From assembly GCF_025399895.1 (NCBI RefSeq), contig NZ_JAODUA010000011.1:124001-188000 (forward strand): 64,000 nucleotides of DNA. Direction: 5' to 3'. Positions 18,907-33,292 of the stretch are shown piece after piece (positions within the stretch are counted from its first letter, which is position 1; each line of letters starts with the position of its first letter). The position numbers and the translations under genes are program-made. Source of the DNA: Streptomyces sp. ASQP_92. GTDB taxonomy: Bacteria > Actinomycetota > Actinomycetes > Streptomycetales > Streptomycetaceae. The notes under the pieces were generated by a model. That model saw nothing but the letters and a program-made list of their open reading frames with translations, was not told the origin of the DNA and ran no database searches.

Positions 18907-19762
18907 GTCGTGTTCGCCTCTGGATGCCGACCAGCCTCCAGTCTCCCGCAGCAGTCCGGGCGCTGGCTAATGCAGGTTAGGGCCTTGTCGTGGGTTGTCC
19001 CCGGAAGACGCCTGGGCGTACGCCGCGAAGAGCTGACCCTGCTGTCTTGGGATGGGGAAAGCATGGGCGGGAGTCGATGGCACCCGCCGTGCGAGGTATC
19101 TCCGCCATCAGGGTGTCTCGCATTCCCGTTATGGCGATGTCGACAACCGGGATCTGAATCTGTAAGTCGTCCAATTATCTGCTGCTGCAGCTGGATTTGC
19201 TGCCATGTCCTTGAGATTATCGACTGCGTTGCTCAGGGCCGAGGGCGCGTCGGACTTGAGCCCATCGGGAACGCCCCAGCTGCTTTTCCCGCCCGCACGA
19301 CCACCTCACCAGCACCTCGAGTCTCCAAGTTGCCAGCTTGGTTGTTCTACAGGTGATTTCTCAAAAGCGAGGAGCCTCGCGTGGCGAGCGTGCCATCAAT
19401 ATTCGTCAATCATTTCCGACCGTGGTTATGAAGGTCCCCAAGGGCATAGACGACTTGCCTGGATGGGCGGGGACCCACGGAGTCGGCTGCGCCGCCGCTG
19501 AAAGAAGTTTTAGCCTGTGCGGCGAACTTAGCGCCCACGGTGTGGCGAGTCAACGAGTCGGACTTAGCGCCCAAATTGACGCTCGCGCGTCGCGTCTTCG
19601 GCCTTTATCGATTACCGCTCCGTATGTCAATTAATCGGGCTTTCGCTTGCGCTCGGCTGATCTGTCGTCCTAGCTTTTCCCCACTGGACCGAGGGAAGGT
19701 CAACGGCATCGCTCGAGGTCCAGGTAATTCACTTTTTCAATCCAGGGGGAGGCGTCTTCGAA
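18907..19762. other. 856-base region without a supported gene, between divergent defence genes
   Basis: It separates the leftward REase-STAND gene from the rightward sigma-drmAB operon. The sequence is visibly more A/T-rich than its surroundings, especially 19100-19760. Open frames of 90-200 codons exist but overlap one another and match nothing. A 12-bp direct repeat ACTTAGCGCCCA occurs at 19526-19537 and 19562-19573. It may be a remnant of a lost gene plus the operon promoter. Confidence 0.5.
19647..19676 (+). promoter_or_regulatory. possible sigma-70-type promoter of the sigma-drmAB operon
   Basis: TTGCGC at 19647-19652 and TAGCTT at 19671-19676 are separated by 18 bases, ~90 bases before the sigma-factor start. 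The match to consensus is partial, so this is a weak call. Confidence 0.3.
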
Positions 19763-20911
19763 GTGGAAGACGTGATCGAAGCCTGCGTCGAGGCGCTCAT
19801 GGAGGACAGCGAGCGTCTGGGCCGGCTTGAGCGTGCTCACGTGGTTCAGGTTGCGAGCCGTCGAGGCATCGATCCGCAGCAGGTGGGGCGCGTCATCACG
19901 ATGCTGCGCGAGTACGGGGTGCTGAGCCAAGAACCGGGGGGTGAGGGTGCGGATCGCGGTGGGATCAGGACGGACACCGGGCCGACGGCGTCCAGTGGCG
20001 ACAACCAGTCAGACGCCTACCCGGGACGGATCGGGCGCCACCGCATCTTGACGGCCGAGGAGGAAGTGGCATTGGGCCGACGCATCCAGATGGGACTACG
20101 GGCAGCGGAGGGTGGTGAGGTGTCGGATGAAGTGGCTGAGCTGGTACGTGACGGTGAGGCGGCCCGCAGGGTGCTCGTTCGGCACAACGTGCGCCTGGCT
20201 ATCGATATCGCGAGGCGGTACTTGCCGAGCGCGGGCGACCTGGAGCTTGACGACCTGATCCAGGACGGAGTCCTGGGGCTCAACCGTGCGGCGGAGAAGT
20301 TCGATCCGACGCGGGGCTACAAGTTCTCGACGTACGCCAGCTGGTGGGTGCGGCAATCGGTAAGCCGGGCCATCGCGAACACTAGCTCCGCGGTCCGCTT
20401 GCCGGTGCACGTCCGCGACGACCTGCGGCGTGTGCAGCAGTACGCGCGCCGTTTCGAGGAGCGCAACGGACGATCCGCGACGGTGGCGGAGCTGGCCGAG
20501 GGACTGAGTGAGAAGGGAGAGGAGATCCAGGCTCTGTTGGACTACTCCGCCCCCATCATCCACCTGGATGTCCCAGTGGACGAGGAAGGTGGTGCCACTC
20601 TCGGCGATCTGGTGCTGGCCGCCAAGGCGGAACGGCCGGAAGACGAGATCATCCGCCGGCTCTTGAAGGAGCAGATCCTCACGACCATCAGCACTCTGCT
20701 CGACGGCACCGACCCACGTCTGGCGCGGTTGTTGGAGGGGCGCTTCGGACTGGATGGCGAGGATCCCATGACGCTCGACGCGTTGGGCAAGGAGTTTGGC
20801 TGCACCCGCGAGTGGGTGCGGCAACTGCAGAAGAAGTTGCTTGAGCGGCTGCGGGATAACTGCAGCCTCAGGCAGCTAACGCTGGAATTCTTGGCGATGG
20901 AGGCGACGTGA
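19763..20911 (+). CDS. sigma-70 family (group 2-like) RNA polymerase sigma factor
   Basis: A 382-residue sigma factor with regions 1.2 to 4. An acidic N-terminal helical part (~1-55) resembles the sigma 1.1 winged fold (IDPQQVGRVITMLREYGVLS). Region 2 is clear: VRHNVRLAIDIARRYLP, DLIQDGVLGLNRAAEKFDPT and YKFSTYASWWVRQSVSRAI. Region 3 is PVHVRDDLRRVQQYARRFEE, and region 4.2 is TLDALGKEFGCTREWVRQLQKKLLERL. Unlike ECF factors it keeps all core regions, so it could recognise a -10/-35 promoter on its own. GTG start behind GGGGGAGG. Its stop overlaps the GTG start of the DrmA-like gene, which has GGAGG just upstream, so they are translationally coupled. Confidence 0.9.
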   Translation: MEDVIEACVEALMEDSERLGRLERAHVVQVASRRGIDPQQVGRVITMLREYGVLSQEPGGEGADRGGIRTDTGPTASSGDNQSDAYPGRIGRHRILTAEEEVALGRRIQMGLRAAEGGEVSDEVAELVRDGEAARRVLVRHNVRLAIDIARRYLPSAGDLELDDLIQDGVLGLNRAAEKFDPTRGYKFSTYASWWVRQSVSRAIANTSSAVRLPVHVRDDLRRVQQYARRFEERNGRSATVAELAEGLSEKGEEIQALLDYSAPIIHLDVPVDEEGGATLGDLVLAAKAERPEDEIIRRLLKEQILTTISTLLDGTDPRLARLLEGRFGLDGEDPMTLDALGKEFGCTREWVRQLQKKLLERLRDNCSLRQLTLEFLAMEAT

Positions 20912-23900
20912 CGCAGGACGTGGTGGAGGCGCAGAGCCGGTTCGTGGACTGGCTCGACAGCCAGGTAACAGCAGAAGGACGAGGGGACCGGGACAACGTC
21001 TTGGACGCGGACCCGGCCGGGGTGTACTGGTTGGGCCGGCTGGCTCCGGAAAGCGAAGCGGCCGCCGTACGTAGAGAGCGGCGCATGGACCCGTGCGCGA
21101 TTGGCCTGCGAGTGCGGCCCGAGATCGAGGGGCCATGGACACTGCGGGCACGCCTGCGTGCGCTGGCCTGGAACCAGGTGCGCGGTTCGGAGGGGCGAGG
21201 CGAGAAGTGGGAGAAGACGGCGTCGATCGACGTAGTGGTGCCGATCGAAGTCCCATTGGGGGCCGCAGGAGTGGTCTTCGGCAGGCGTCAGATCGCCGAG
21301 GCCCTGGACGCGGCGGGTGCGGTGGGCTCGTGCGCGGAGGTGCGCGTAACGGACGAGTCTTGGCGCGGCAGCCCTGAGCTCGTGGTGGAACTCGTCAACA
21401 CCACGCCTGACGGCTCGCGTCAGCGAGGCGAGCGTCATCTCTTCGAAGTGGAGCTGACGGTCCTGGACCTGCGGACCACTCCTTTCCTGCTGGAATCCCT
21501 GCCCGAGAGCTTCCGCTACGACCGGCGTTTGCCGGCCATCGGCATTAACTGTGGTGTTGCTCTCCGGGGCGTCAATGAACTTGTTACCACCGATCAGGTC
21601 GTTGTCGATCGATATCGCCCTGAATACACTTTTGAGCGGACCAACGCCGGGGTGTTGCCGCTGACCTTCGAGCATCTGGCCCAAGAACCGGTGGCCATCC
21701 TCGCGCGGCTGGTGGAGGCGTATGAGGCTTGGGGACTCGAGCACTGGTCCTCGGAAGCCTTGCAACGCCGTGCCACAGAGGAGTCTTGGAAGCCGGAGAT
21801 GCTCCAAGAAGCCGTGGGAGCTGCTGCGGAGCACACGGCCGAACTCCAGCGGCTACGTGCCGGCGTGGCCGTTCTGGAACAGGACGCCGATCTACGTCAA
21901 GCCTTCCAGCTCATGAATCGCGCCATGCGCCGCGCTGCCTGCGGGCGCTACGTGGGCTGGCGCCCGTTCCAGATCGGTTTCATTCTCTCAGTGCTGCCCT
22001 CCTTGGTGAACGAGGGCGAAGATTGGCAGCAGGTCGAGATCGTGTGGTTTGCCACCGGCGGTGGCAAGACCGAGACGTATCTCGGTCTGCTTGTCCTAGC
22101 CGCCTTTTATGATCGACTGCGCGGGAAGCTCGCGGGCATCACGGCCTGGAGTCGATTCCCCCTACGGATGCTGTCCCTTCAACAGACCCAGCGCTTCGCG
22201 GACGCCCTAGCCGCAGCCGAGCTGGTGCGTCGTCAACACGCGATCGGGGGGGAGCCGATTTCTTTGGGGTACTTCATCGGTGCGGGCGCGACCCCCAACG
22301 AAATTCCTATCGCGCCTACCGAATACAACCCCATCGACGTGGACGAGCCTCGTATGGCGGACCGCTACCAGGTTCTCACCGCCTGCCCGTTCTGCGGGTC
22401 GAAGGAGATCCGCATGAAGTTCCACCGCGGTGACTGGACACTGCGTCATCTGTGCGCGGCACCTGGCTGCCCCAGCGATGGTAAGCCGCTACCGGTGTAT
22501 GTCGTCGACCAGGAGATCTACCGCTTCCTGCCCACCGTCGTTATCGGCACCCTGGACAAGGCCGCACTGATTGCTATGCAGGGAGGCATGCGGGGCTTCT
22601 TCGAGGGACCGGCCGGACGCTGCTCACGCCCCGGCCATGGGTTCACGTACGCGAAGCGCGCTAAGCGGCCTACCGGCTGCCTGGTCCCCGATTGCCCCGG
22701 CGAGACCACGCCGCTGGCACCTAGGGACCGCGCGCGATTCGCCCCCTCCTTCCGGCTGCAAGACGAACTGCACCTGCTACGTGACTCCCTGGGCGCGGTG
22801 GACTCCCACTACGAGTCATTGCTGGACGCCCTGCAGACGGAGCTCACCGGTAGAGCCCCGAAAATTATTGCCTCGTCGGCGACTCTGACGGGATTCGAGC
22901 GTCAGGTAGAGGTTCTGTACAACCGACGCGGCCGGGTATTCCCAGTTCCTGGCCCCTCTGCTCGCGAGTCCTTTTGGTCTCGTGAGACGGATCGACTGCT
23001 CCGCAGGTTCGTCGCGGTGTGGCCGCGCGGAGTCACACTTGAGTGGGTCTCAGACCGGACCACGACCATCCTCCAGCAGTCTGTGCGCCGTCTGCATGAC
23101 GAGCCCCAGGCCGTATGTGCTGAGGCAGGCGTCGACCCCGTCCACGTGCCCATGCTTCTGAACCTCTATGGCACTCATGTGGTGTACGGCAACACTGTGC
23201 GTGATGTTGAGGCCGCCAGGCGCTCCCTCGGAACACAGGTCCCCGTCACGCCTCTCAACGCCGCCCAACTCACCGGTCAAACCCCATTCGAGGAAGTCCG
23301 CGAGACCCTGCAACGCCTCTTGCGTCCTGAGACGAATTTCCTTGACCGCCTGCACGTGATCACCGCGTCCTCGATGATCTCGCACGGCGTGGACGTCGAC
23401 AGGCTGAATGTGATGACTGTGCTCGGCGTGCCGCTGACAACTGCGGAGTTCATTCAGGCCACGGCCCGCGTGGGACGCGCCCATCCCGGCTTGGTGTACG
23501 TCATCCACAAGATCGGCCGCGAACGGGATTCCGCCGTTTTCTCCCAGTTCAGGCCCTTCATCGAGCAGGGCGACCGCTTCGTGGAACCCATTCCCATCAC
23601 TCGCGCCAGCCGTCGTGTGCTGGAGCTAACCACCAGCGCGGCAATCGAGTCCCGCCGTCTGTTCGTCCACGAACCGCGTTCGGCTGGCGGACGGCTTACC
23701 ACCGTGGACCTGCTCCGGAAGTACACCGCTCAGACGGGCTTGACCGCTGCGGAGGAGGCGCGGGCCTGCACCGCCGCCCTGGGAGTGGATGAAGAACACC
23801 ATCTGGCTTTCACCGACGTGACCCGTCAGCTCGAGACGTACTTCATGCGCCTGGAGAACCCTGGAGACGGAGCCAAGTGGCCCAATCAACTGCTCGCACG

Positions 23901-23958
23901 CGCACCCATGCGTTCCCTGCGTGATGTCGAAGCCCAGATCCCCGTCAGCGACGACTAA
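20908..23958 (+). CDS. drmA: DISARM-type SF2 helicase DrmA-like
   Basis: A 1016-residue helicase-related protein with the features of DrmA. Walker A is FATGGGKTETYLGLL (residues 381-395). A zinc ribbon CPFCGSKEI...HLCAAPGCP lies between motifs I and II. Motif II is DELH (619-622) in RLQDELHLLRD, followed by motif III ASSATLTG. Motif VI is QATARVGRAHPG (from residue 850), preceded by SHGVDVDRLNV. The ~370-residue N-terminal part has no match I recognise. In DISARM, DrmA pairs with DrmB and loads on incoming DNA. Here it is followed by the DrmB-like gene after 22 bases and preceded in overlap by a sigma factor. It could also be a Druantia-type relative, but the pairing favours DrmA. Confidence 0.8.
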   Translation: MTQDVVEAQSRFVDWLDSQVTAEGRGDRDNVLDADPAGVYWLGRLAPESEAAAVRRERRMDPCAIGLRVRPEIEGPWTLRARLRALAWNQVRGSEGRGEKWEKTASIDVVVPIEVPLGAAGVVFGRRQIAEALDAAGAVGSCAEVRVTDESWRGSPELVVELVNTTPDGSRQRGERHLFEVELTVLDLRTTPFLLESLPESFRYDRRLPAIGINCGVALRGVNELVTTDQVVVDRYRPEYTFERTNAGVLPLTFEHLAQEPVAILARLVEAYEAWGLEHWSSEALQRRATEESWKPEMLQEAVGAAAEHTAELQRLRAGVAVLEQDADLRQAFQLMNRAMRRAACGRYVGWRPFQIGFILSVLPSLVNEGEDWQQVEIVWFATGGGKTETYLGLLVLAAFYDRLRGKLAGITAWSRFPLRMLSLQQTQRFADALAAAELVRRQHAIGGEPISLGYFIGAGATPNEIPIAPTEYNPIDVDEPRMADRYQVLTACPFCGSKEIRMKFHRGDWTLRHLCAAPGCPSDGKPLPVYVVDQEIYRFLPTVVIGTLDKAALIAMQGGMRGFFEGPAGRCSRPGHGFTYAKRAKRPTGCLVPDCPGETTPLAPRDRARFAPSFRLQDELHLLRDSLGAVDSHYESLLDALQTELTGRAPKIIASSATLTGFERQVEVLYNRRGRVFPVPGPSARESFWSRETDRLLRRFVAVWPRGVTLEWVSDRTTTILQQSVRRLHDEPQAVCAEAGVDPVHVPMLLNLYGTHVVYGNTVRDVEAARRSLGTQVPVTPLNAAQLTGQTPFEEVRETLQRLLRPETNFLDRLHVITASSMISHGVDVDRLNVMTVLGVPLTTAEFIQATARVGRAHPGLVYVIHKIGRERDSAVFSQFRPFIEQGDRFVEPIPITRASRRVLELTTSAAIESRRLFVHEPRSAGGRLTTVDLLRKYTAQTGLTAAEEARACTAALGVDEEHHLAFTDVTRQLETYFMRLENPGDGAKWPNQLLARAPMRSLRDVEAQIPVSDD

Positions 23959-23980
23959 CCAAACCAGGGAAGGCACAGCA

Positions 23981-25735
23981 ATGAAGGACGAGCGCAGCGG
24001 ATCCCAGATCCTCTACAGCTTCCTCCCACAGCAGACCGCTGACCTCAAAGGCGGAATCTGGCGCACCGCTGAGTGGAAAGACCCGCGCCCCGTCGATGTG
24101 GAGGATTCGATCATTAGGGGCCGCCTGATCTCCGAACTCGAAGGCTGGGTAGGCCGCGGCCTGGACGTTACCGCCGTGAATTATCTGCGTGCAGGCGGCC
24201 CGGTCGAAGTCGTGGGGGTTAACCCCGAACGAGGAGTACGCGTCGAGCGCTTTCCCCTGGTATGGGTGTGCCGCGGATGCCGACGTGTGGAGACCGGCAC
24301 CGTCAAGACCTGTCAGTGCGGGAGCAACCACTGGAGACAGCTGCACTTCGTCGGGTTCCATGACTGCGGACTGCTGGAACAACCCCCAATTCCTCTGTGC
24401 AGGGAGCACCGACAGGTCCGCATGCCTCACCAGTCGAGCATGGATGCCGCACGCATCCGTTTCGAGTGTCCGGTATGCCAGAAGGAGATCCAGAAGGGCT
24501 TCGCATGGCGTAAGTGTTCCTGCGGGCGCCGATACTCAGAGGCCAAGAACGCGGAGTACCTGCGTTACAACGTTCACCGATCTGCCAGCGTCTACACGCC
24601 CCAGACCTTCACACAGATCAACCCAGCCAGCCGCGCCGCGATGCGCCGCGTCACCGAGTCTGGCGGACCGCGTCGTGCTCTACTTTGGGCCTTGGGCGGC
24701 TTTGAGGACTCCGAGCCTGGTGCAGGCCGCCAGACCCAGACCTCCCTGGTCGACCAGCTCGTCGCTTCCGGGCTAACCCGCGCGGTTGCCGAGCAGATGG
24801 CCGCCGTGGCCGGCGCAGCAGGAGAATTGGGTGCCGAGGAAGACCTCGGCGAGCTGGCTAATGCCCACAGCCTGCAAATCGAAGCCGCTGAACGGGAGGC
24901 CGTAGACGTTGCCTTGGCAGCTACCGAGAAGGGCTCCCGCCAGCGCGTTGCCGACCTCGTCACTGCTGCTACCCCGCCCGCTGTTCAGACCCGCTACCAA
25001 GTCCACTATCCCGCCGCTCTGCAGCGCGCAGGACTAGCTGGGGTGGACCTGTTCACAGACTTCCCCGTCCTCAAGGCCGTATATGGGTACACACGAGGCG
25101 GCGGTGAGCCTGGTACCTCCCGCCTGAGCCTGTTCACGGGTAAAAGCGGACGACGGATCTATGCCGACCTGCGATCCACGGAGGCCCTGTTTTTCCGCCT
25201 CGACCCCCTCCTGGTCCACACCGCCTTGCGTCAACGCGGGCATGTACTACCGCCAGCAGACGACGCGCGCACCGCCCGCACCGTTCTCGCCGCTCATGTC
25301 ACCCCGCCTTCTCGCTTCAGCGACCCGGATGACGCGTCGCCCGTCGGCCGGGACCTTCTCACCCTCATCCACTCCTACGCACACCGGGCCATCCGCCAAC
25401 TCGCTGTCTTCGCTGGTGTTGACCGCGAGGGATTGGGCGAATACCTCATCCCTCGGCACAACGGCTTCTTCGTCTTCGCAGCCAGCCGAGGTGATTTTGT
25501 CCTTGGTGGCCTGCAAGCTGTATTTGAGAACGACCTGCACATCCTGCTCGCGAGCATCGCCGGCGCCGAGTCCCGGTGTGCTATGGATCCCGCCTGTGAA
25601 CGTAACGGCGGCGCTTGCCCCGCCTGTTTGCATCTGGGCGAACCGGCTTGCGACCACTTCAATCGCTATCTGAATCGCACGGCCCTTTTCGGCCCCGACG
25701 GCTTCCTCGCCACCTCCGCACACCAAAAGCCGTAA
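23981..25735 (+). CDS. drmB: DISARM DUF1998 protein DrmB-like
   Basis: A 584-residue DUF1998-type protein. Two zinc-finger-like clusters occur in the first third (C97-x2-C100...C111-x-C113; C163-x2-C166...C179-x-C181). The C-terminal part has LLTLIHSYAHRAIRQLAVFAG, GEYLIPRHNGFFVFA and GGLQAVFENDLHILL, then a cysteine cluster CAMDPACERNGGACPACL. This is the expected DUF1998 arrangement. DrmB forms a complex with DrmA in DISARM and is the marker gene of that system. The ATG has AGGGAAGG upstream. No DrmC phospholipase-D protein follows; the next gene is convergent. Confidence 0.8.
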   Translation: MKDERSGSQILYSFLPQQTADLKGGIWRTAEWKDPRPVDVEDSIIRGRLISELEGWVGRGLDVTAVNYLRAGGPVEVVGVNPERGVRVERFPLVWVCRGCRRVETGTVKTCQCGSNHWRQLHFVGFHDCGLLEQPPIPLCREHRQVRMPHQSSMDAARIRFECPVCQKEIQKGFAWRKCSCGRRYSEAKNAEYLRYNVHRSASVYTPQTFTQINPASRAAMRRVTESGGPRRALLWALGGFEDSEPGAGRQTQTSLVDQLVASGLTRAVAEQMAAVAGAAGELGAEEDLGELANAHSLQIEAAEREAVDVALAATEKGSRQRVADLVTAATPPAVQTRYQVHYPAALQRAGLAGVDLFTDFPVLKAVYGYTRGGGEPGTSRLSLFTGKSGRRIYADLRSTEALFFRLDPLLVHTALRQRGHVLPPADDARTARTVLAAHVTPPSRFSDPDDASPVGRDLLTLIHSYAHRAIRQLAVFAGVDREGLGEYLIPRHNGFFVFAASRGDFVLGGLQAVFENDLHILLASIAGAESRCAMDPACERNGGACPACLHLGEPACDHFNRYLNRTALFGPDGFLATSAHQKP

Positions 25736-25854: not shown

Positions 25855-26472
25855 CTAGGGCATCGTGATGAGCTCCGGGTTATCGATCATGGTTCGGTGC
25901 AGGTGGCTCAGGTCGACGCCGCAGTGATTCGCGAGCCGAACGTGACGCTCACGCGCGTGCTGGGGAATCGTTTCGCCGTCCCTTGTGGTGATCACGATAC
26001 CGGGGCGGCTGGGCGAGTCGATCGCCTCGTTCAGCACTGCCCAGATGAGGTCTTTCAAGACCCCGGCCTTACCCCAACAGATGTAACGCTTGGTCTTCCC
26101 ATCTGTGGCAAGGCAGTGGTTGGGCTTGCCTTCCACCGAGTCGGGGACCACTGACCAGCCAGGCCCGCAGAAGAACTGGACGATCTCGTCCGCCCCGCGG
26201 AAACGGCGGCGGACGTACGGGACGAACTTGCCGATACCCTCCTGAGCCCTGGCGTACTCCTTCATCGGTACGTCCTTGATCCACACCCGGACGTCCTGGT
26301 CGCTGGCGAAGTCTCGGAGCTCCCCGCCGATTTGAGGATCATCGAACCAGCGACGGTACTGAGCGGTCTTCCCGGGATTGCTCAGGAACTCCCAGTCCAG
26401 CTCGTCGGCGGTGCGGTACATGCTTAGGAGGATGCGACGACGGAGAGCTTCGGGAAGGTTGAGCTGGGGCAA
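25855..26472 (-). CDS. unknown protein, last gene of the MORC/helicase operon
   Basis: About 205 residues, no family recognised. The frame starts five bases after the stop of the REase-helicase gene if a TTG at 26472 is used (PQLNLPEALRRRILLSMYRT); an ATG at residue 17 of that frame is the alternative. Notable segments are ELDWEFLSNPGKTAQYRRWF, KFVPYVRRRFRGADEIVQFF and KRYICWGKAGVLKDLIWAVL. No signal peptide or transmembrane segment. Codon use is normal for the region. Its place at the end of a restriction-type operon suggests a specificity or regulatory role, but the sequence does not show one. Confidence 0.65.
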   Translation of the reverse strand: MPQLNLPEALRRRILLSMYRTADELDWEFLSNPGKTAQYRRWFDDPQIGGELRDFASDQDVRVWIKDVPMKEYARAQEGIGKFVPYVRRRFRGADEIVQFFCGPGWSVVPDSVEGKPNHCLATDGKTKRYICWGKAGVLKDLIWAVLNEAIDSPSRPGIVITTRDGETIPQHARERHVRLANHCGVDLSHLHRTMIDNPELITMP

Positions 26473-26477
26473 GGCGG

Positions 26478-28154
26478 CTACTCCAGGGTGGCGAGGGCGG
26501 ACGGGAACTGTAGGCGGTGCTCGTCGTACGCGGTTTCGAGGCTGGCCGCGTCCTTGATCCACTCTTCCATAAGGGTCGCGACTCGTTGGTCGTTGAACTC
26601 AATGCGCGATGGGGCGACTTGGTCCAGGGTCTCCACCTCACCGCCCTCCAGGCTGCGCTTGATGTTGAGGGCCGCCGCGATCCGCCGCAGATCGCTGACG
26701 AAGTCGAGCACCGTCACGCGTTCCTTGCCCGTCCTGAGCCGGAGCCCCCGTCCCAACTGCTGGACGAAGATCCGGCGGGAGTGAGTCACCCTGGCGAAGC
26801 AGAGGATGTTGACGTCGGGGACGTCGACACCCTCATTGAGGATGTCGACAGAGGTGAGGATGGGGACCTCGCCGCTGCGGAAGGCGAGAAGGCGGCTCTG
26901 CCTCTCGCGCTTGGCCAGGCCCGCGTGCAAGGCCAAGGCTCCGGACCAAAGGGGGGTTCGACGCAGGAGTTCGGCCAGTCGTTCGGCGTGCTCAACCGTG
27001 CGACAGAACACGATGGCGCGGGGGTTGGCGGTGGCCGCCCATGCCGCAGCTAGTTCATCACGGATGGACTCGTCACGCTGCGGCAGGAAGAGGTGGGCGT
27101 TGAGGTCCGCCAGGCCGTATTCATGCTCGCTGGCCGCCTTGACGACATCCCAGTCGACGTTGTCGACGAACAACCGGTAGTCCACCTGCGCCAGGTAGCC
27201 CCGACGCATTCCCTCCTCGATGCCGAGTGTGAAACTCGCCGGCCCGAAGTGGTGGCCGATGTCGTGAGCGTCGCCTCGCCAAGGTGTGGCTGTGACCCCG
27301 AACTGCCTGGAGGCGGACAGGACTTCCAGTAGTTCGTCGTACTGCCCGTCCGCGCCGACGTGATGCGCCTCGTCAACCATGACAAGCGCCGGCCGGTAGC
27401 CGAAGCGGGCGGCTGGCAGAGCGGAGCCGACGGTGGCGCAGGTGACTCCGGACAGGTCGTCGGGGCGGGTGTCTCCGGTGAGCAGGCGGGTGGGGACCTC
27501 CCTGGGCAGGTGCCGCCATAGCGCGCGTTCGAGTTGCTGGACCAGGTCCTTGGCGTGCGCCACCACAAGAACTTGATCCGTGGGGTGACGACGGAGGTGC
27601 GCCGCGATGACCTCACCGCCCACCACGGTCTTGCCGAGCCCTGTCGCCAGGATGAGCAGGGCGCGTCCGTGGGAGTCCAGGTCCTTGTCCAGGGCCCAGA
27701 GCGCCTCGGCCTGGTAGGGCCGGGGTGTCACCTCCCCGAAGCGGGGTGCGAGTCCCTTGAAACTGCGGGCGAGGTGACCGCCCTCCCAGAGGTGGATGCT
27801 CGGGCGGATGCGGGACAGTACGTCGACCCGGCGCCGGGCGTCCGAGCTGAAGCGGCTGTTGGTCACAACGACGGCCTGATGCGCGCTGTAGTGGTCCCGC
27901 GCGTTGTCGACCTCGTCCACGGCGTCAGCGCCGACGACTCCGCGCCGCTTCCACTTGCACTGGAAGACCCACAGCTCTCCCCGCCGGCGCGCGAGGACGT
28001 CGCCACCCTCGTCGCCGGAGCCGTCGATGACGGCGACGTCTGTGAAGCCGAGATGCCACAGGAGCCGCTCGACGCACCTCGGGAACTGCAGAGGCCCGGC
28101 GTCGAGAAGTGGGCCTGGGTCCAGGAAGCTGTGCATCGCCTCTCCGATCCTCAC
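26478..28154 (-). CDS. Mrr-type nuclease fused to SF2 DEAH helicase
   Basis: A 558-residue fusion. Residues ~20-130 are a restriction endonuclease-like domain of the Mrr type: GDEGGDVLARRRGELWVFQCKWK, with D52 and the Q65-C66-K67 core. Residues ~140-500 are an SF2 helicase: Walker A ATGLGKT (170-176), DEAH (261-264), GVTATPWR, AIVFCRTVEHAERLAELL and motif VI QQLGRGLRL. It would couple ATP-driven translocation to DNA cleavage, as in type I/III-like restriction. It overlaps the stop of the preceding ATPase gene by four bases, so the two are translationally coupled. Confidence 0.88.
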   Translation of the reverse strand: MRIGEAMHSFLDPGPLLDAGPLQFPRCVERLLWHLGFTDVAVIDGSGDEGGDVLARRRGELWVFQCKWKRRGVVGADAVDEVDNARDHYSAHQAVVVTNSRFSSDARRRVDVLSRIRPSIHLWEGGHLARSFKGLAPRFGEVTPRPYQAEALWALDKDLDSHGRALLILATGLGKTVVGGEVIAAHLRRHPTDQVLVVAHAKDLVQQLERALWRHLPREVPTRLLTGDTRPDDLSGVTCATVGSALPAARFGYRPALVMVDEAHHVGADGQYDELLEVLSASRQFGVTATPWRGDAHDIGHHFGPASFTLGIEEGMRRGYLAQVDYRLFVDNVDWDVVKAASEHEYGLADLNAHLFLPQRDESIRDELAAAWAATANPRAIVFCRTVEHAERLAELLRRTPLWSGALALHAGLAKRERQSRLLAFRSGEVPILTSVDILNEGVDVPDVNILCFARVTHSRRIFVQQLGRGLRLRTGKERVTVLDFVSDLRRIAAALNIKRSLEGGEVETLDQVAPSRIEFNDQRVATLMEEWIKDAASLETAYDEHRLQFPSALATLE

Positions 28155-30478
28155 CTGTCGTCCGCGAGGTCACGGGCGATCAGGCGGCAGCTAACACGGA
28201 TACGTCCCAGCTCCTCGGGCGTGACCTTGGGTCGGTGCTGGGCGAGAAGCGCCAGGTCGCTCAAGGGGTTCATCAAGCGTTCCACCATCAAGTCACGTGC
28301 GTCTGAGGCCGACAGCGCGGCATACGAGCGTCGGAAGACCTTCCCGTCCATGAAGAGCGCCGGAGACTCGCTGATGACGCGCAGAATGGCGCTGGCGGGC
28401 GCGAAGCGGATGAAGTCGCCGTTGTTAACAGCCTCGTTCCAGTCGAGACCGGGTTCGGATTCCAGGGCGAACCGCTCCTCGGCGGCCTCCCTTTCCTCTG
28501 CCCGCAGTTGCAGCCAGTGAACGGCCGGCGTCTCCGCGATCACTGGGGCCATCAGCGTGCGAATCCGCTCCAGGAGCCGCTCAGCTTCATCGGCCATCGC
28601 GGTCGGCGTCAGCCGGGGGCTGGAGGAGCGCTCCTTGAACAGGAGCAGCAGCTGGGTCAGGGGCGTGGAGTTGTTGTTCTTCCGGACGCGCATGTACTCG
28701 GCCGCCTCCAGCAGCGCGACGTCACGCATGTCCACCCCGTGCTCGCGATAGAGGTGGTGATCGGAGTCGACGAAGACCTCCAGCTGCGGGGACCGCACCA
28801 TGATGGCGAAGGCCGGGGTCTCCTGGTCCTTGGCGTTGGTGAGCCGCTGGTCCCGCACGGCCCAGACTCTCAGTTCGACCCGCCCCATCTCGGGGATCAA
28901 GTACTCCCCGGCGAGGTCGGGGAACTGGTCGGCACCGTCACGGTAGCGTTGTAGCCGCTGCTCGAAGGTCTCTGCCGGATCCTCGGCCGCCGGCGGAACC
29001 TCATCGACCGCAGGTGTCTCCTGATCCTTGTCCTCACCGGGCGAAGCGGGGCCGAGACCGGGCAGAAGCTCGTCTGCATCGCTGTCGGTGCCAGGGTCCG
29101 GCTCATTTTGGACCGGGTGATCGTTGCTGTACGCCGCCTCATACCAGATCTCGTCGCTCTGGTAGTCGGGGTGTCCGTCCCGGAACAGCTTCGCCCATTG
29201 GACGGTCTTCTCGTGGATGGCCTCCTTGCCGTTTCCGGGCACCAAGTAGTTCAGGCCCGCGTCTTGGCGGCGGAAGCCTGAGTACAGGAGGGCGAGCGGA
29301 CTCTCGTTCTCCGGCAGCTGTCGCCGCTTGGCGATCTCCGGACGCAGCGGGCTCTCGCCACGGATGGCTCGGAGCACCTGGTGCCACTCTGCGGTCTCGA
29401 ACTCGAATGCGGTCTTCTGGTAGTTCGGGGTGACGTGGTCGCAATGGATCTCTCCGACAATGCGGCCCGTGGCCGCCTTGGAGTCGATCGGGTACTCCAA
29501 TTCCGGCTCTCCGAGGCCGTCCTCGTCGGTCCAGTAGAAGACTCGCTTGTCCTTGAGCAGGATCTTGCGGCCGTTGCGGAGGAAGTCGACGCCGTAGTCC
29601 GTGCGGTGCACGTAGCGCTGGACTCCGAGCCAACCCCAGATGCGACGGGAACGGACCACAAGACGGTCCTGATCGCACTCTCGGCAGCGTTCGACGTCCA
29701 GCGGGTTCCAGTACCCGCAAGCCATGCACGCCTTCTTGTCAGTGAGAGCGACGTCTATGCGCTGGACGGCGTTGATCTCCACGCCCCGTCGGGTGACGGT
29801 GCGCTTCTCGTCCCAGACACAGGGCTTCCGAGGCGGCAGCTTCTTCCCGTTGATCGTGAGCAGGAAGCCACGCTCCGTGAGGAGGTAGCTGTACACGTCG
29901 CTCAGCTTCTCCCTGATCACCTTCAGGGCGTTCGCACGACGAAGCGCCTCGAACTGCTCACCCTTGAGGTCGCTGATGGTGATGACGGTCCCGTGCTCCG
30001 AGGGATTCAATTTGGGCAACTGGCGGTGCGGCGCTTGGTACTCCTCCGACGCTTCGATCTCCGGAAGGTCGAGCGTGACCTCCGTCCAGTAGGAGTCGCC
30101 GGCGCGTCCCGTGCGTACGACGGTCTTGCGCCCGAGCCGGGCGGTCGCGATGTTGAAGCCCATGCCGAACAGGCCCAGGGCGCCGTGTCGGCCGTTGCCG
30201 CTCCAGCCGGCGCTGATCGCGTTGCGCACCTCGTCGAGACTCATGCCCCGGCCGTTGTCCTGGACGAGCACCTCAGCCGTGGACCGCGAGTCCTGAGCGG
30301 TCGGCAGTGAGATGCTCACGGTGGGCCTCTCGCTCCCCGTCTCGGGGGAGGATTGGAACACGTCGAAGGCGTTGTCCACGAGTTCGGCGAGGCACTGCCA
30401 GGCCGCGAACTCGATGTCACCCAGGACACCGAGGATGCGGGGGTGCGGCATCACGTTGATGTACTGGCCCTCAGACAT
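28151..30478 (-). CDS. MORC/MutL-type GHKL ATPase
   Basis: A 775-residue protein starting at ATG 30478, preceded by GGGGAG. The GHKL ATP-binding fold fills the first ~200 residues: catalytic-type Glu32 in LAELVDNAFDVF, DNGRG (74-78) and GLFGMGFNIATARLG. A middle zinc-binding pair ACMACGYWNP...CRECDQDR follows. An Asp/Glu/Pro-rich linker (DPGTDSDADELLPG) then leads to a helical C-terminal half. GHKL ATPases of this kind are known beside C5 methylases, Vsr nucleases and SF2 helicases in bacterial restriction operons and are relatives of eukaryotic MORC proteins. They probably clamp DNA on ATP binding. It is divergent from the AbrB-type gene. Confidence 0.85.
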   Translation of the reverse strand: MSEGQYINVMPHPRILGVLGDIEFAAWQCLAELVDNAFDVFQSSPETGSERPTVSISLPTAQDSRSTAEVLVQDNGRGMSLDEVRNAISAGWSGNGRHGALGLFGMGFNIATARLGRKTVVRTGRAGDSYWTEVTLDLPEIEASEEYQAPHRQLPKLNPSEHGTVITISDLKGEQFEALRRANALKVIREKLSDVYSYLLTERGFLLTINGKKLPPRKPCVWDEKRTVTRRGVEINAVQRIDVALTDKKACMACGYWNPLDVERCRECDQDRLVVRSRRIWGWLGVQRYVHRTDYGVDFLRNGRKILLKDKRVFYWTDEDGLGEPELEYPIDSKAATGRIVGEIHCDHVTPNYQKTAFEFETAEWHQVLRAIRGESPLRPEIAKRRQLPENESPLALLYSGFRRQDAGLNYLVPGNGKEAIHEKTVQWAKLFRDGHPDYQSDEIWYEAAYSNDHPVQNEPDPGTDSDADELLPGLGPASPGEDKDQETPAVDEVPPAAEDPAETFEQRLQRYRDGADQFPDLAGEYLIPEMGRVELRVWAVRDQRLTNAKDQETPAFAIMVRSPQLEVFVDSDHHLYREHGVDMRDVALLEAAEYMRVRKNNNSTPLTQLLLLFKERSSSPRLTPTAMADEAERLLERIRTLMAPVIAETPAVHWLQLRAEEREAAEERFALESEPGLDWNEAVNNGDFIRFAPASAILRVISESPALFMDGKVFRRSYAALSASDARDLMVERLMNPLSDLALLAQHRPKVTPEELGRIRVSCRLIARDLADDR

Positions 30479-30544
30479 ACGTTGTGGCTCCCCGGGTCCC
30501 GTGTGCCGCGTCGTACTGGATGTAGTGCCTTGGACCGGCGGGGT

Positions 30545-30571
30545 GTGAGTCTCGCGTCGTCCGCGACTCAC
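30545..30571. promoter_or_regulatory. inverted repeat between MORC and AbrB-type genes
   Basis: GTGAGTC (30545-30551) and GACTCAC (30565-30571) are perfect complements 13 bases apart, in the 185-base divergent promoter region. The placement suits an operator, for example for the AbrB-type protein. This is inference. Confidence 0.4.
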
Positions 30572-30663: not shown

Positions 30664-30903
30664 GTGATGCGCATCGCCGACGATCTTTCCTTAGTACGCG
30701 CCAGACTGGCCCTCATGATCCGAGAGCCCGCCGAGGTAATCATCGACGAGAACGGTCGGGTCGAGCTGCCCATGGGGCTACTAGCAGAGGCCGGCCTTGG
30801 TTGGGGCAGCCGTCTGCTCGCCCACAGTGCGGGCGACGGTAGCATCGTGCTGCGCCGTGCCGAGGACGCCATCGCCGACCTTCTGGGGGATGGCAAGTTG
30901 TGA
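30664..30903 (+). CDS. AbrB/MazE-type swapped-hairpin DNA-binding protein
   Basis: A 79-residue protein. Residues ~25-65 (VIIDENGRVELPMGLLAEAG, then GSRLLAHSAGDGSIVLRR) match the AbrB/SpoVT/MazE beta-hairpin pattern with the conserved GR-x-x-LP core. Such proteins are dimeric regulators or antitoxins. GTG 30664 or ATG 30667 may start it. It is divergent from the MORC gene and its last 123 bases are antisense to the 3' end of the vsr gene, so it may regulate the surrounding module. No toxin gene is adjacent. Confidence 0.7.
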   Translation: MMRIADDLSLVRARLALMIREPAEVIIDENGRVELPMGLLAEAGLGWGSRLLAHSAGDGSIVLRRAEDAIADLLGDGKL

Positions 30904-31713
30904 GCCAGCGTGCCCAGGGGCCGCAGTACGGCGCCTTGCCCTAACGAGCGCGATGATCTTTTCGGCGGCCACCGATGGGTCCTCGTGCTCCCATACCCGC
31001 ACAGGCAGCCAGCCCGACTCCTCCAACACGCGGTTCGTCTCGGCGTCCCGTGTGCGGTTCCCCTCGATCTTGTTCCGCCAGAAATCCTCGTTCGTCGCTG
31101 GCCACCGACAGTGGTCCGGGCAACCGTGCCAGAAGCATCCATCCACGAACACGGCCACCCTCACACCGGGGAAGGCCACGTCTGCGGTTCTCCGCAGGCT
31201 GCGCAGAGGGCGGTGGGAGACGCGGTATCGCACGCCCCGCTCGTGCAGGTGCTTACGCAGGAGCTTCTCCGGAGCCGTGTCGCGCGACCGGTTGCCCTGC
31301 ATCGATGCGCGAACCGAGTGGCTCGCCGCCCATGAGGACGCTGGCGCCTCCTCCTGGGGGCGCTGCACAAGGCCGCGATCGATGGCCCGGCGCCACGCCT
31401 CGGCGAGATTCTCGCGCCGAGTCTCGTGTTCGACCTCTCCGAGGTAAACGGGCCTACGGGTGGTCCCCTTGTCGGACCAGCGCAAATAGGCCCGGATCCG
31501 GCGGGTCTTGGTCAGTACCTTCAGCTCGACGGAGGCGCGGGCTCGGCGCCCCTCGCCCAAGTCCACCCAGCGTCGATCAGGTCCGCCTGCGGCTTTGTCC
31601 TGCTCCGCCGACGCTTGGGCCCTTGTCCTACCGGGCCGCCCTTTCCACGCTTTCTCGGGGGGCTGTTTGTCCTTCCAACGGCCCTGACGTGGAGTCGCTT
31701 TCGCGGTGGTCAC
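30781..31713 (-). CDS. vsr: Vsr-family nuclease with N- and C-terminal extensions
   Basis: The Vsr fold lies at residues ~140-256: RDTAPEKLLRKHLHERGVRYR, then TADVAF with the catalytic Asp near 178, VFVDGCFWHGCPDHC and ENRTRDAETNRVL-like ending (GNRTRDAETNRVL), WLPVRVWEHED. Vsr nicks near T:G mismatches left by deamination of 5-methylcytosine, or acts as nuclease in some R-M systems. This copy is 310 residues instead of ~140. About 135 N-terminal residues form a basic domain (VELKVLTKTRRIRAYLRW) and ~50 C-terminal residues lie antisense to the AbrB-type gene. The GTG start overlaps the dcm stop (GTGA). Confidence 0.85.
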   Translation of the reverse strand: MTTAKATPRQGRWKDKQPPEKAWKGRPGRTRAQASAEQDKAAGGPDRRWVDLGEGRRARASVELKVLTKTRRIRAYLRWSDKGTTRRPVYLGEVEHETRRENLAEAWRRAIDRGLVQRPQEEAPASSWAASHSVRASMQGNRSRDTAPEKLLRKHLHERGVRYRVSHRPLRSLRRTADVAFPGVRVAVFVDGCFWHGCPDHCRWPATNEDFWRNKIEGNRTRDAETNRVLEESGWLPVRVWEHEDPSVAAEKIIALVRARRRTAAPGHAGSQLAIPQKVGDGVLGTAQHDATVARTVGEQTAAPTKAGLC

Positions 31714-33035
31714 CGCGTGCTCCCCGCCTTGCCCAGGGCGTTGGCCACCGCCTTCGCGAAGAACTCGCCCAACAGAACGGGAACAGCGTTCCCGAGCTGG
31801 CGCATCTGCTCTCCGCGGGGGCCCTCCAACACCCAGTTGTCCGGAAACGTCATGACGCGGGCCGTCTCTCGCACGGTCATGTACCGGTGCTTGTACCTCC
31901 AATCCCCTGGAGTGAAAGGGTCACGCTCGCGTTCGTCGGTCAACATCACCGACTCGCCGCCAGGGACTCCGTGGACGCCCGCCTTCACTGTCTTCGCCGG
32001 ACGGTCCAGCTCGTTCGGGGTGTGCCCCTTGTAGATACGCGCGCCAGGCCAGCCGATGTGGTTGGTCACGCCGCCCAGGTGGCGCTCCTGCCGGTCGAGA
32101 TGGCCCCAAGGGACGGGCGGTAGGGGTGGCTCACCGTTCAGGCCGGCCAGTGCATCGCGGAACGTCCGCCAGGGAAGCAGTGACGCTTCCTCCGTGTCAT
32201 TCCGCTTCGGGAGCCCAGCCATGACTCGATCATGAACGTAGTCCGGGACCTGGTGCCGAGCCCAGTAATCGCCCTTCACCATTGAGCGGACCAGAGCGGC
32301 ATACGAGTGGGTGGGCCTCACGCTCCGCTTGAACGCCTCGACGTCCACGCCGAGGTCTCGACGGAACGCAACGATGATCACCCGGTTCCTCACCTGCGGT
32401 ACGCCGTAGTCCGCCGCGTTCACGGTCGTTGCCACTACGTCGTAAAGCTCATAGCCCCCGGACGGGTCGGAGGCACGGCCGGCCCGCAACGCGGCGTCAT
32501 ACGTCCGCAAGAGGGCGTCGTGTTCCTGCCACGTGGTGTCCGGGTCGCGTTTCAGGTAGGGATACGACAGCTCGTTGAGGATGTACTGGAAGTACGGCTC
32601 GAAGGACTTCCTGCGAAGTCCGACGACGTTCTCGCAGATCACGGCCTTGGGTTGGATCTCGCGAACGGCCCGGAACATCTCCGGGAACATGTTCCGCTTG
32701 TCCTCGTCCCCCTTGGCGATGCCTCCGAGGCTGAAAGGCTGGCACGGCGGCCCTCCGGCCAACACATCCACCTTGCCGCAGAGGTAGCGCATATCGAGCT
32801 CGCGGACATCCCCTGAGACGAGCGGCACAGGTCCACCGGGTTCGGGGATCCACTCCTCCTCGCCCCGCTCCTTGGCGCCGTTCGCCTCCAGCGTCTCGCA
32901 GGCGCGTTTGGCGACCTCGCTGACGAGGAGCGGTCGGAAGCCCGCTCGCCCGACGGCCATGGCCAGGCCGCCGCCGCCGGCGAACAGTTCCACCGCCGTA
33001 CGGTCGGGCGATCGGTATTCTTGCTGCTCAGACAT
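31710..33035 (-). CDS. C5-cytosine DNA methyltransferase
   Basis: A 441-residue DNA (cytosine-5) methyltransferase. Motif I is ELFAGGGGLAMAVGRAGF, motif IV is AGGPPCQPFSLGG with catalytic Cys98, motif VI is CENVVGL, motif VIII is QVRNRVIIV and motif X is RQLGNAVPVLLGEFF. The target-recognition region between VIII and IX (~200-340) gives no clue to the site. The ATG at 33035 (MSEQQEYRSP) is preferred to a further upstream codon that adds an unlike extension. First gene of a two-gene unit with vsr; it should protect host DNA from a nuclease of the same island and make 5-methylcytosine in this genome. Confidence 0.92.
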   Translation of the reverse strand: MSEQQEYRSPDRTAVELFAGGGGLAMAVGRAGFRPLLVSEVAKRACETLEANGAKERGEEEWIPEPGGPVPLVSGDVRELDMRYLCGKVDVLAGGPPCQPFSLGGIAKGDEDKRNMFPEMFRAVREIQPKAVICENVVGLRRKSFEPYFQYILNELSYPYLKRDPDTTWQEHDALLRTYDAALRAGRASDPSGGYELYDVVATTVNAADYGVPQVRNRVIIVAFRRDLGVDVEAFKRSVRPTHSYAALVRSMVKGDYWARHQVPDYVHDRVMAGLPKRNDTEEASLLPWRTFRDALAGLNGEPPLPPVPWGHLDRQERHLGGVTNHIGWPGARIYKGHTPNELDRPAKTVKAGVHGVPGGESVMLTDERERDPFTPGDWRYKHRYMTVRETARVMTFPDNWVLEGPRGEQMRQLGNAVPVLLGEFFAKAVANALGKAGSTR

Positions 33036-33292
33036 TACAAAACCATACCGCGGAGTACGTCTCGTTGGAAAGTGGAACACACAGATTCACCATCTGAGTC
33101 AAGAGCGCACGGGGATGTATGGGGGCACGGGGCAGCGATACCTAGACCGCTGAGTTACGCACACGTACGGGTGGTGAGCCGTAGAGCTAACGCGGTCGGC
33201 GGCGGGGTCTCTTCTCAGCCCCGACGCTCACTGATTGACCCGCAGGCGATCCCGCAGTGCGTGATGTCAGTGGGCTCAGCAAGACTGCCGTC

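What the first reader, a model, noticed from the sequence alone, without database searches (positions are those of the whole stretch)
19763..25735. A DISARM-like DrmA-DrmB pair coupled to its own sigma factor
The sigma factor stop overlaps the DrmA-like start (GTGA), and DrmB follows after 22 bases, so the three are one translation-linked unit. Known DISARM classes pair drmAB with drmC and either drmD/drmMI or drmE/drmMII. None of drmC, drmD or drmE is here, and a sigma-70-type factor is not a described DISARM part that I know. A dedicated sigma could switch the defence on from a cognate promoter, or could take part in sensing phage takeover of RNA polymerase.
Basis: partly seen in the sequence, partly recalled or inferred. 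Interest (0 to 1): 0.87.

Follow-up and report, generated by a model that had tools for sequence, protein, structure and literature searches.

The report
DISARM-like defence with own sigma factor
A Streptomyces-like genome carries a DISARM-related anti-virus gene pair locked to its own RNA-polymerase sigma factor, and the same three genes travel together in bacteria of several phyla and on plasmids and phage-like contigs, which points to a widespread and apparently undescribed form of bacterial immunity with a built-in transcription switch.

Summary
In detail: sigma (19763-20911), DrmA-like helicase (20908-23958; GTGA overlap) and DrmB-like protein (ATG 23981-25735) lie in this order on one strand. 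The only significant PDB matches of the DrmA and DrmB profiles are the DISARM subunits. The clade is one branch of the DrmA tree; sigma and DrmA distances correlate. Strict DISARM membership is not met (no drmC/D/E found; scores below NCBIfam cut-offs). Best reading: a DISARM-related restriction system whose dedicated, intact sigma factor switches on its own genes. That last step is inferred, not shown.

The parts
19647..19676 (+). candidate promoter of the sigma-drmA-drmB operon (TTGCGC, 18 bases, TAGCTT)
   Evidence: TTGCGC identical in 4 of 4 Streptomyces-type copies; TAGCTT in 3, TAGCGT in L041; spacing 18 in all (position); picked by eye, no experiment
19763..20911 (+). sigma-70 factor, regions 1.2-4 plus an N-terminal ~55-residue helical (winged-helix-like) domain
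   Evidence: Pfam, PDB sequence and fold matches, model
20908..23958 (+). DrmA-like SF2 (YprA family) helicase
   Evidence: PADLOC DrmA, NF038325 385 bits, PDB DrmA 7s9v_A E 1.5e-83; helicase motifs in 15 of 15 aligned
23981..25735 (+). DrmB-like (DUF1998/HAR type) protein; longest ORF starts at 23921
   Evidence: PADLOC DrmB, PDB DrmB 7s9v_B by profile E 2.4e-12 and fold E 1.2e-12, TM 0.43-0.48
31710..33080 (-). DNA C5-cytosine methyltransferase (Dcm type), first gene of the convergent operon; true start probably the ATG at about 33035
   Evidence: Pfam PF00145 172.5 bits; conserved start region; a Dcm lies in 28 of 32 fetched loci
30781..31902 (-). Vsr-family endonuclease
   Evidence: TIGR00632 115 bits, over cut-off; Vsr in 18 of 32 loci
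28151..30571 (-). GHKL ATPase, accessory
   Evidence: Pfam HATPase_c_3; found only in the window, L035 and L040 of 32 loci
26478..28154 (-). Mrr nuclease plus ResIII helicase fusion, accessory
   Evidence: Pfam; window, L035 and L040 only
25855..26562 (-). 235-aa conserved protein of unknown family, accessory
   Evidence: 85-89% identical in L035 and L040; no Pfam hit

Best explanation
A mobile, DISARM-related restriction cassette. A C5-methyltransferase marks self DNA. The DrmA-DrmB complex loads on unmarked, single-strand-ended phage DNA and, with Vsr, NERD or Mrr nucleases, destroys it. A dedicated sigma factor of the RpoD/SigA type, co-translated with DrmA in this lineage and inherited with it, directs RNA polymerase to the cassette's own promoters, so that the system runs in any host it enters, can be turned up as a unit, and can be timed against its methylase. 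Shown by computation: gene identities, linkage, co-inheritance, intact sigma and helicase motifs, conserved promoter-like elements. Inferred: phage defence, the promoter targets of sigma, the order of events.
For: Sigma in the cassette in 30 of 31 assessable loci, 0 of 54 other DrmA/YprA loci. DrmA clade supported at SH-aLRT 100 (quick method). DrmA-sigma distance correlation rho 0.64, n=22, 0 of 999 permutations as high; sigma-NERD helicase rho 0.82, n=14. In one search the 30 cassette sigmas fall on one side of a branch against 14 host RpoD-like factors (support 53/89, not significant), and host factors of different phyla group together rather than with the local cassette, so repeated pick-up of the local housekeeping factor is unlikely. 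The -35-reading motif RExxRQ is kept in 27 of 27 and the WW promoter-melting pair in 26 of 27, while the residue aligned to sigma70 T440 differs by lineage (roles and numbering recalled). A promoter-like ATCTTGCMA lies at the dcm start in 6 of 8 sigma-downstream loci. In S. oceanensis (L062) the sigma gene is gone while the upstream region, dcm, drmA and drmB remain; pairwise dN/dS of its DrmA is 0.11-0.17, no looser than 0.17-0.24 among relatives that keep sigma. Three loci continue with a DrmD-like helicase and four with a type IIG/DrmMI-like methylase. DISARM DrmAB is activated by unmethylated DNA with a 5' overhang (PMC9142583, passages).
Against: No expression or infection data. The ATCTTGCMA pattern was picked by eye from five of the six loci, so only L032 is an independent find; six further copies lie elsewhere in the same eight loci, its -10 part does not align well, and it was not found upstream of the sigma operon. 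One origin of the cassette sigmas is not significant: 38% of bootstraps, where one host factor (L124) fell among them, and 55%. L062 suggests that the system can do without sigma. The window's sigma operon promoter looks like an ordinary housekeeping-type promoter, so sigma may not read it. Co-inheritance fits any functional link, not only a transcriptional one, and the correlations do not correct for host relatedness.
Confidence: 0.6

Rival explanations
1. The sigma factor is a stand-in for the housekeeping factor: when a phage blocks or redirects the host sigma, the cassette keeps its genes transcribed with its own.
For: All 27 aligned sigmas keep near-consensus -35 reading residues, as a substitute would. 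An N-terminal domain that among plasmids is covered only in the two cassette plasmids (2 of 506 records with a sigma match) could alter contacts used by phage anti-sigma proteins.
Against: No direct evidence; the -10-reading position differs between lineages, which suits own promoters better than housekeeping ones.
Confidence: 0.17
2. Sigma is a structural part of the defence complex: it brings DrmAB to promoter-like melted DNA or to RNA polymerase on phage genomes.
For: 4-nt overlap of sigma and drmA in 11 of 12 actinobacterial sigma-first loci; DrmAB binds single-stranded DNA (PMC9142583, passages); the WW melting pair is kept in 26 of 27.
Against: In 7 of 29 loci sigma is on the opposite strand beyond a NERD helicase. 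L062 keeps drmAB intact without sigma. DISARM as described has no sigma (PMC9142583, passages).
Confidence: 0.1
3. Ordinary DISARM-like locus with a linked but unrelated sigma factor that serves the mobile element or host stress.
For: The cassette lies on plasmids and beside phage genes; L062 lacks sigma.
Against: Sigma follows DrmAB over several phyla and different elements and was not found in other DrmA loci; its N-terminal domain was seen only beside drmAB among plasmids.
Confidence: 0.08

Closest known systems
DISARM (drmA, drmB, drmC with drmD/drmMI or drmE/drmMII; gene sets partly recalled)
   Same: Separate DrmA and DrmB genes homologous to the solved DISARM subunits 7s9v; a DNA methyltransferase nearby; some relatives carry DrmD-like and type IIG/DrmMI-like genes.
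   Different: No drmC, drmD or drmE found in the window; a conserved sigma factor; Vsr and NERD/Mrr helicases instead of a PLD nuclease; DrmA, DrmB and DrmD scores below curated NCBIfam cut-offs.
MZA (mzaABCDE)
   Same: The one defence system with a sigma-70 component that I found in print (PMC9523054, section 11 and passages; PMC10924106, passages, notes a Sigma70 domain in mzaA).
   Different: The window's and L063's sigmas score 231 and 236 bits against a cut-off of 800 and match only the C-terminal part of the model. No Z1 or AIPR match among the nine scanned window proteins; the window's GHKL ATPase resembles a MutL-type partner only in fold class and has no PADLOC match.
ARMADA, BRIGADE, TALON, Druantia, Dpd (YprA-family systems, Bell et al. 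2025)
   Same: YprA-family helicase core; Vsr and NERD nucleases recur in the family (PMC12458937, abstract, sections 5 and 7 and passages).
   Different: There the DUF1998 part is typically fused to the helicase and Vsr is a C-terminal domain of it; here they are separate genes. The main text mentions no RNA-polymerase sigma factor; its supplements were not read.
CapW/BrxR, CapH-CapP and CapK-CapS controlled immune operons
   Same: A dedicated, adjacent transcription regulator of an immune operon, DISARM included (PMC13373217, passages).
   Different: Those relieve repression after DNA damage; here the regulator is an RNA-polymerase sigma subunit.

Membership tests
DISARM | DrmA helicase homologue | tested here: met
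   PADLOC DrmA 351 bits; PDB DrmA 7s9v_A E 1.5e-83
DISARM | DrmB (DUF1998/HAR) homologue as a separate gene | tested here: met
   PADLOC DrmB 91 bits; 7s9v_B E 2.4e-12 by profile and the only fold match under 0.001
DISARM | scores above the curated NCBIfam cut-offs for DrmA and DrmB | tested here: not met
   385 of 950 bits and 43 of 240 bits
DISARM | drmMI or drmMII methyltransferase | tested here: inconclusive
   a C5-methyltransferase is there but matches a type II MTase model best (286 bits; best DrmMII model 123 bits) and sits in a convergent operon
DISARM | drmC PLD nuclease | tested here: not met
   no match among the 9 window proteins scanned
DISARM | drmD or drmE | tested here: not met
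   none among the 9 window proteins (for proteins 4 and 7 only the best 25 families were shown); DrmD-like genes in relatives L042, L046 and L062
DISARM | restricts phages | not testable with these tools
   needs infection assays
MZA | MzaA sigma over cut-off, with Z1 and AIPR partners | tested here: not met
   231 of 800 bits; no Z1 or AIPR in 9 window proteins by Pfam
[quoted passage not shown]
   DrmA, DrmB and Vsr are separate genes; no BrxHII-PglX pair among the 9 window proteins scanned

The most novel reading that the evidence does not exclude
The sigma factor is an effector-targeting subunit: RNA polymerase holoenzyme with this sigma, or sigma itself, hands DrmAB to promoter-melted, unmethylated phage DNA, making a restriction system that finds invaders through their promoters.
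Probability: 0.08. Interest if true: 0.95.

Novelty: new variant of a known kind. Interest (0 to 1): 0.8.

Why it matters
Adjacent regulators known for immune operons mostly act by repression; a sigma factor kept through transfers between phyla as a near-constant part of a DISARM-related system would be a different way to control immunity, and could explain how one cassette works in very different hosts. It also offers ready experiments: natural copies with and without sigma, and two gene orders.

Tried and rejected
MZA membership was considered because the sigma hits MzaA models; rejected on scores and partner genes. Region 1.1 identity of the N-terminal domain: Pfam Sigma70_r1_1 in only 3 of 27 members, best E 0.014, beside other winged-helix families at similar scores; left open. 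LexA control: GAACATTTGTTC lies upstream of the cassette in 7 of 7 Micromonosporaceae loci; two perfect boxes lie upstream of lexA in Plantactinospora, but none perfect at the lexA-family genes of Dactylosporangium or Salinispora vitiensis, and no box with up to one mismatch lies upstream of the window's sigma; so it is a lineage trait, not the general switch. Perfect boxes also occur scattered in 10 of the other 25 loci, and SOS-box patterns of other bacteria gave scattered hits only. DrmA in viral contigs by the single window protein: nothing. INPHARED phages: no match to the DrmA of L061. Literature: nine searches, seen as listings except for the six papers opened; none describes a sigma factor with DrmAB in what I saw. 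Subscription papers and supplements were not searchable. PMC12839542 (passages) has only a sigma-like helix-turn-helix in BrxL.
Full report
1. The observation. The sigma stop and the DrmA start share GTGA, and DrmB's ATG at 23981 follows the DrmA stop by 22 bases. Homologues with the same neighbours exist elsewhere, and the four Streptomyces-type copies show pairwise dN/dS of 0.13-0.17 (sigma) and 0.06-0.12 (DrmA).

2. What the proteins are. The sigma factor has regions 1.2, 2, 3 and 4 over Pfam cut-offs; its best PDB sequences are SigB, HrdB and SigA, and its model (mean pLDDT 80, pTM 0.51) matches SigA-type factors. An N-terminal stretch of about 55 residues, modelled as three helices, aligns across the cassette members. 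In the plasmid collection 506 records hold a match to the cassette sigma of L063 and only 2 cover 80% or more of it; both are the plasmids with DrmAB. DrmA: PADLOC DrmA models and NCBIfam NF038325 at 385 bits against a cut-off of 950; the only PDB match (E up to 0.01) of a 15-row profile is DISARM DrmA, 7s9v_A, E 1.5e-83. DrmB: its 15-row profile finds DISARM DrmB (7s9v_B, E 2.4e-12; the only other match is at E 0.46), and Foldseek with its model finds the same chain as the only match under 0.001 (TM 0.43-0.48). Helicase motif patterns are present in 15 of 15 aligned DrmAs.

3. Where else it is. In 297 genomes of the window's own family, the window's included, 107 have some DrmA/YprA match, but only the window's genome and one other (92% identical over the whole length) carry this kind; the next by score is 38% identical over 794 residues. 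The plasmid collection gave two (50% and 43% identity). One scan of the 84,980-species genome collection with a three-row alignment returned 49 loci, of which 25 are of this kind (L040-L063, L065; 47-95% identity), and IMG/VR gave three more. With the window and its near relative the set is 32 loci: Actinomycetota (Streptomyces, Plantactinospora, Dactylosporangium, Salinispora, Haloactinopolyspora, Kineococcus), Pseudomonadota, and one MAG contig each of Planctomycetota, Myxococcota and Acidobacteriota, where binning error is possible. Some are near-copies (four Streptomyces-type, five Salinispora, L089 with L091). The scan starts from two short peptide patterns, so this is a lower bound and not a frequency.

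4. Is the sigma factor really part of it? In 29 of 32 loci a sigma gene lies in the cassette: 22 upstream of drmA on the same strand, 7 on the opposite strand beyond a NERD helicase downstream of drmB. In L057 the contig ends inside that helicase; the other end of the helicase and a sigma 76% identical to that of L055 lie together on another contig of the same genome. L089 is cut inside drmA. L062 (Salinispora oceanensis) lacks it. That is 30 of 31 where the place can be seen. The same search (tblastn with the cassette sigmas, E 1e-3, which would see RpoD-type but not surely ECF factors) over 58 other sequences with DrmA/YprA genes (54 distinct loci, 24 of them with only about 1.5 kb around the match) found none. 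On a 73-row DrmA tree (quick method; 42 of the 54 other loci used; L032 left out) the 31 members form one branch with SH-aLRT 100, L062 inside it among the Salinispora. Distances of DrmA and sigma correlate (rho 0.64, n=22 after dropping eight near-copies, 0 of 999 permutations as high), as do DrmA-DrmB (0.76) and sigma-NERD helicase (0.82); sigma-Dcm is 0.50 and sigma-Vsr weak (0.27, 20 of 999). In sigma trees most cassette members stand apart from host RpoD-like factors, but one origin is only suggested: 38% of bootstraps, one host factor (L124) among the cassettes, without five distant host rows, 55%, support 53/89.

5. The rest of the cassette. A C5-methyltransferase lies in 28 of 32 fetched loci (missing in four Salinispora), Vsr in 18, the NERD-UvrD helicase in 15, in 14 of them next to drmB; L044 has an NgoMIV-type restriction enzyme between Dcm and Vsr. 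Three actinobacterial loci (L042, L046, L062) continue with a helicase whose best PADLOC model is DrmD (about 299 bits; NCBIfam DrmD 320-328 of 610 for the two scanned), and these three plus L043 have a large methylase that matches type IIG enzymes best and DrmMI second (L042, L043 and L046 scanned, L062 by clustering). In the window, Dcm, Vsr, a GHKL ATPase, an Mrr-helicase and a 235-aa protein form the convergent operon; the last three occur only in the window, L035 and L040. By strict definition this is not DISARM: drmC, drmD and drmE were not found among the window proteins scanned and the scores are below the curated cut-offs. It is a DISARM-related variant.

6. How it may work. DISARM DrmAB is held off by a trigger loop and activated by unmethylated DNA with a 5' overhang (PMC9142583, passages); the helicase motifs are intact here. 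The sigma factors keep the residues that read -35 (RExxRQ, 27 of 27) and melt promoters (WW, 26 of 27), whereas the position aligned to T440 of sigma70 is T or S in 13, E in three Micromonosporaceae, Haloactinopolyspora and L065, and K, L, R, D, Q or H in the rest; in six of the eight sigma-downstream members the position aligned to R436 is E (residue roles and numbering recalled). They therefore look like working factors with lineage-specific -10 reading. Conserved promoter-like elements exist: TTGCGC-18-TAGCTT upstream of sigma in the Streptomyces-type copies (TAGCGT in L041), and ATCTTGCMA at the dcm start in 6 of 8 sigma-downstream loci. The second was picked by eye in five of these; L032 is the one independent find, L054 and L060 lack it, and six further copies lie elsewhere in 178 kb of the same loci. 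Which polymerase uses either is unknown.

7. A natural deletion. In S. oceanensis the region upstream of sigma, with the SOS-like box GAACATTTGTTC, runs straight into the last few dozen bases of the sigma gene and drmA. drmA, drmB and dcm are open frames, with pairwise dN/dS of 0.11-0.17 for drmA and 0.12 for drmB; these values include the time before the loss. Its four sigma matches elsewhere are three that group with host factors and one weak. This speaks for a regulatory rather than an obligatory structural role, though the loss could be recent. The same box lies upstream of sigma in the other six Micromonosporaceae loci. Plantactinospora's lexA has two such boxes, but no perfect one was found at lexA in Salinispora vitiensis or Dactylosporangium. 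The window has no box at sigma.

8. Mobility. The cassette sits on plasmids; on two IMG/VR contigs beside tail, endolysin or tape-measure genes; near a phage-type topoisomerase gene in L061 and an integrase in L063. The DrmA of L061 has no match in 50,697 phage records.

9. Novelty. Nine text searches of the held library showed no account of a sigma factor with DrmAB. The most complete survey of the helicase family that I found (PMC12458937; abstract, sections 5 and 7 and passages seen) has no RNA-polymerase sigma factor in its main text; its supplements were not read. MZA is the precedent for a sigma factor in a defence system (PMC9523054, section 11). I rate this a new variant of a known kind: firm on linkage and identity, open on the role of sigma.

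Noticed in passing
L062 9650-10120: Salinispora oceanensis lost the sigma gene from an otherwise intact cassette; the upstream region now runs into drmA.
   Followed up: yes
L042 8289, L043 8290, L045 6917, L047 8294, L048 8321, L049 8321, L062 9888: A perfect SOS-like box GAACATTTGTTC upstream of the cassette in 7 of 7 Micromonosporaceae loci, suggesting DNA-damage induction in that lineage.
   Followed up: partly
L091 13041-18415; L090 9877-11979: On IMG/VR contigs the cassette lies beside endolysin, tail and tape-measure genes, so phage-like elements carry it.
   Followed up: partly
L053, L055, L057, L063, L065, L032 at the dcm start: Promoter-like element ATCTTGCMA conserved where the surrounding sequence is not.
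   Followed up: partly
window 33027-33055: CTCCGCGGTATG block just before the likely dcm start, conserved in 4 Streptomyces-type copies; possibly a leaderless promoter or a self-methylation site.
   Followed up: no
window 16731-18906: Mrr_cat and nSTAND3 pieces in different frames on the minus strand (the latter matches candidate defence model PDC-S73), apparently frameshifted.
   Followed up: no
window 11776-15540: 1254-aa fusion of a caspase (EACC1-associated type) and an SF1-type helicase, another candidate defence gene.
   Followed up: no
L032 14968-20966: drmA frame broken into pieces and drmB interrupted by an IS3 transposase on the Burkholderia aenigmatica plasmid.
   Followed up: no
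L044 6070-6912: NgoMIV-type restriction enzyme between Dcm and Vsr in the planctomycete cassette.
   Followed up: no
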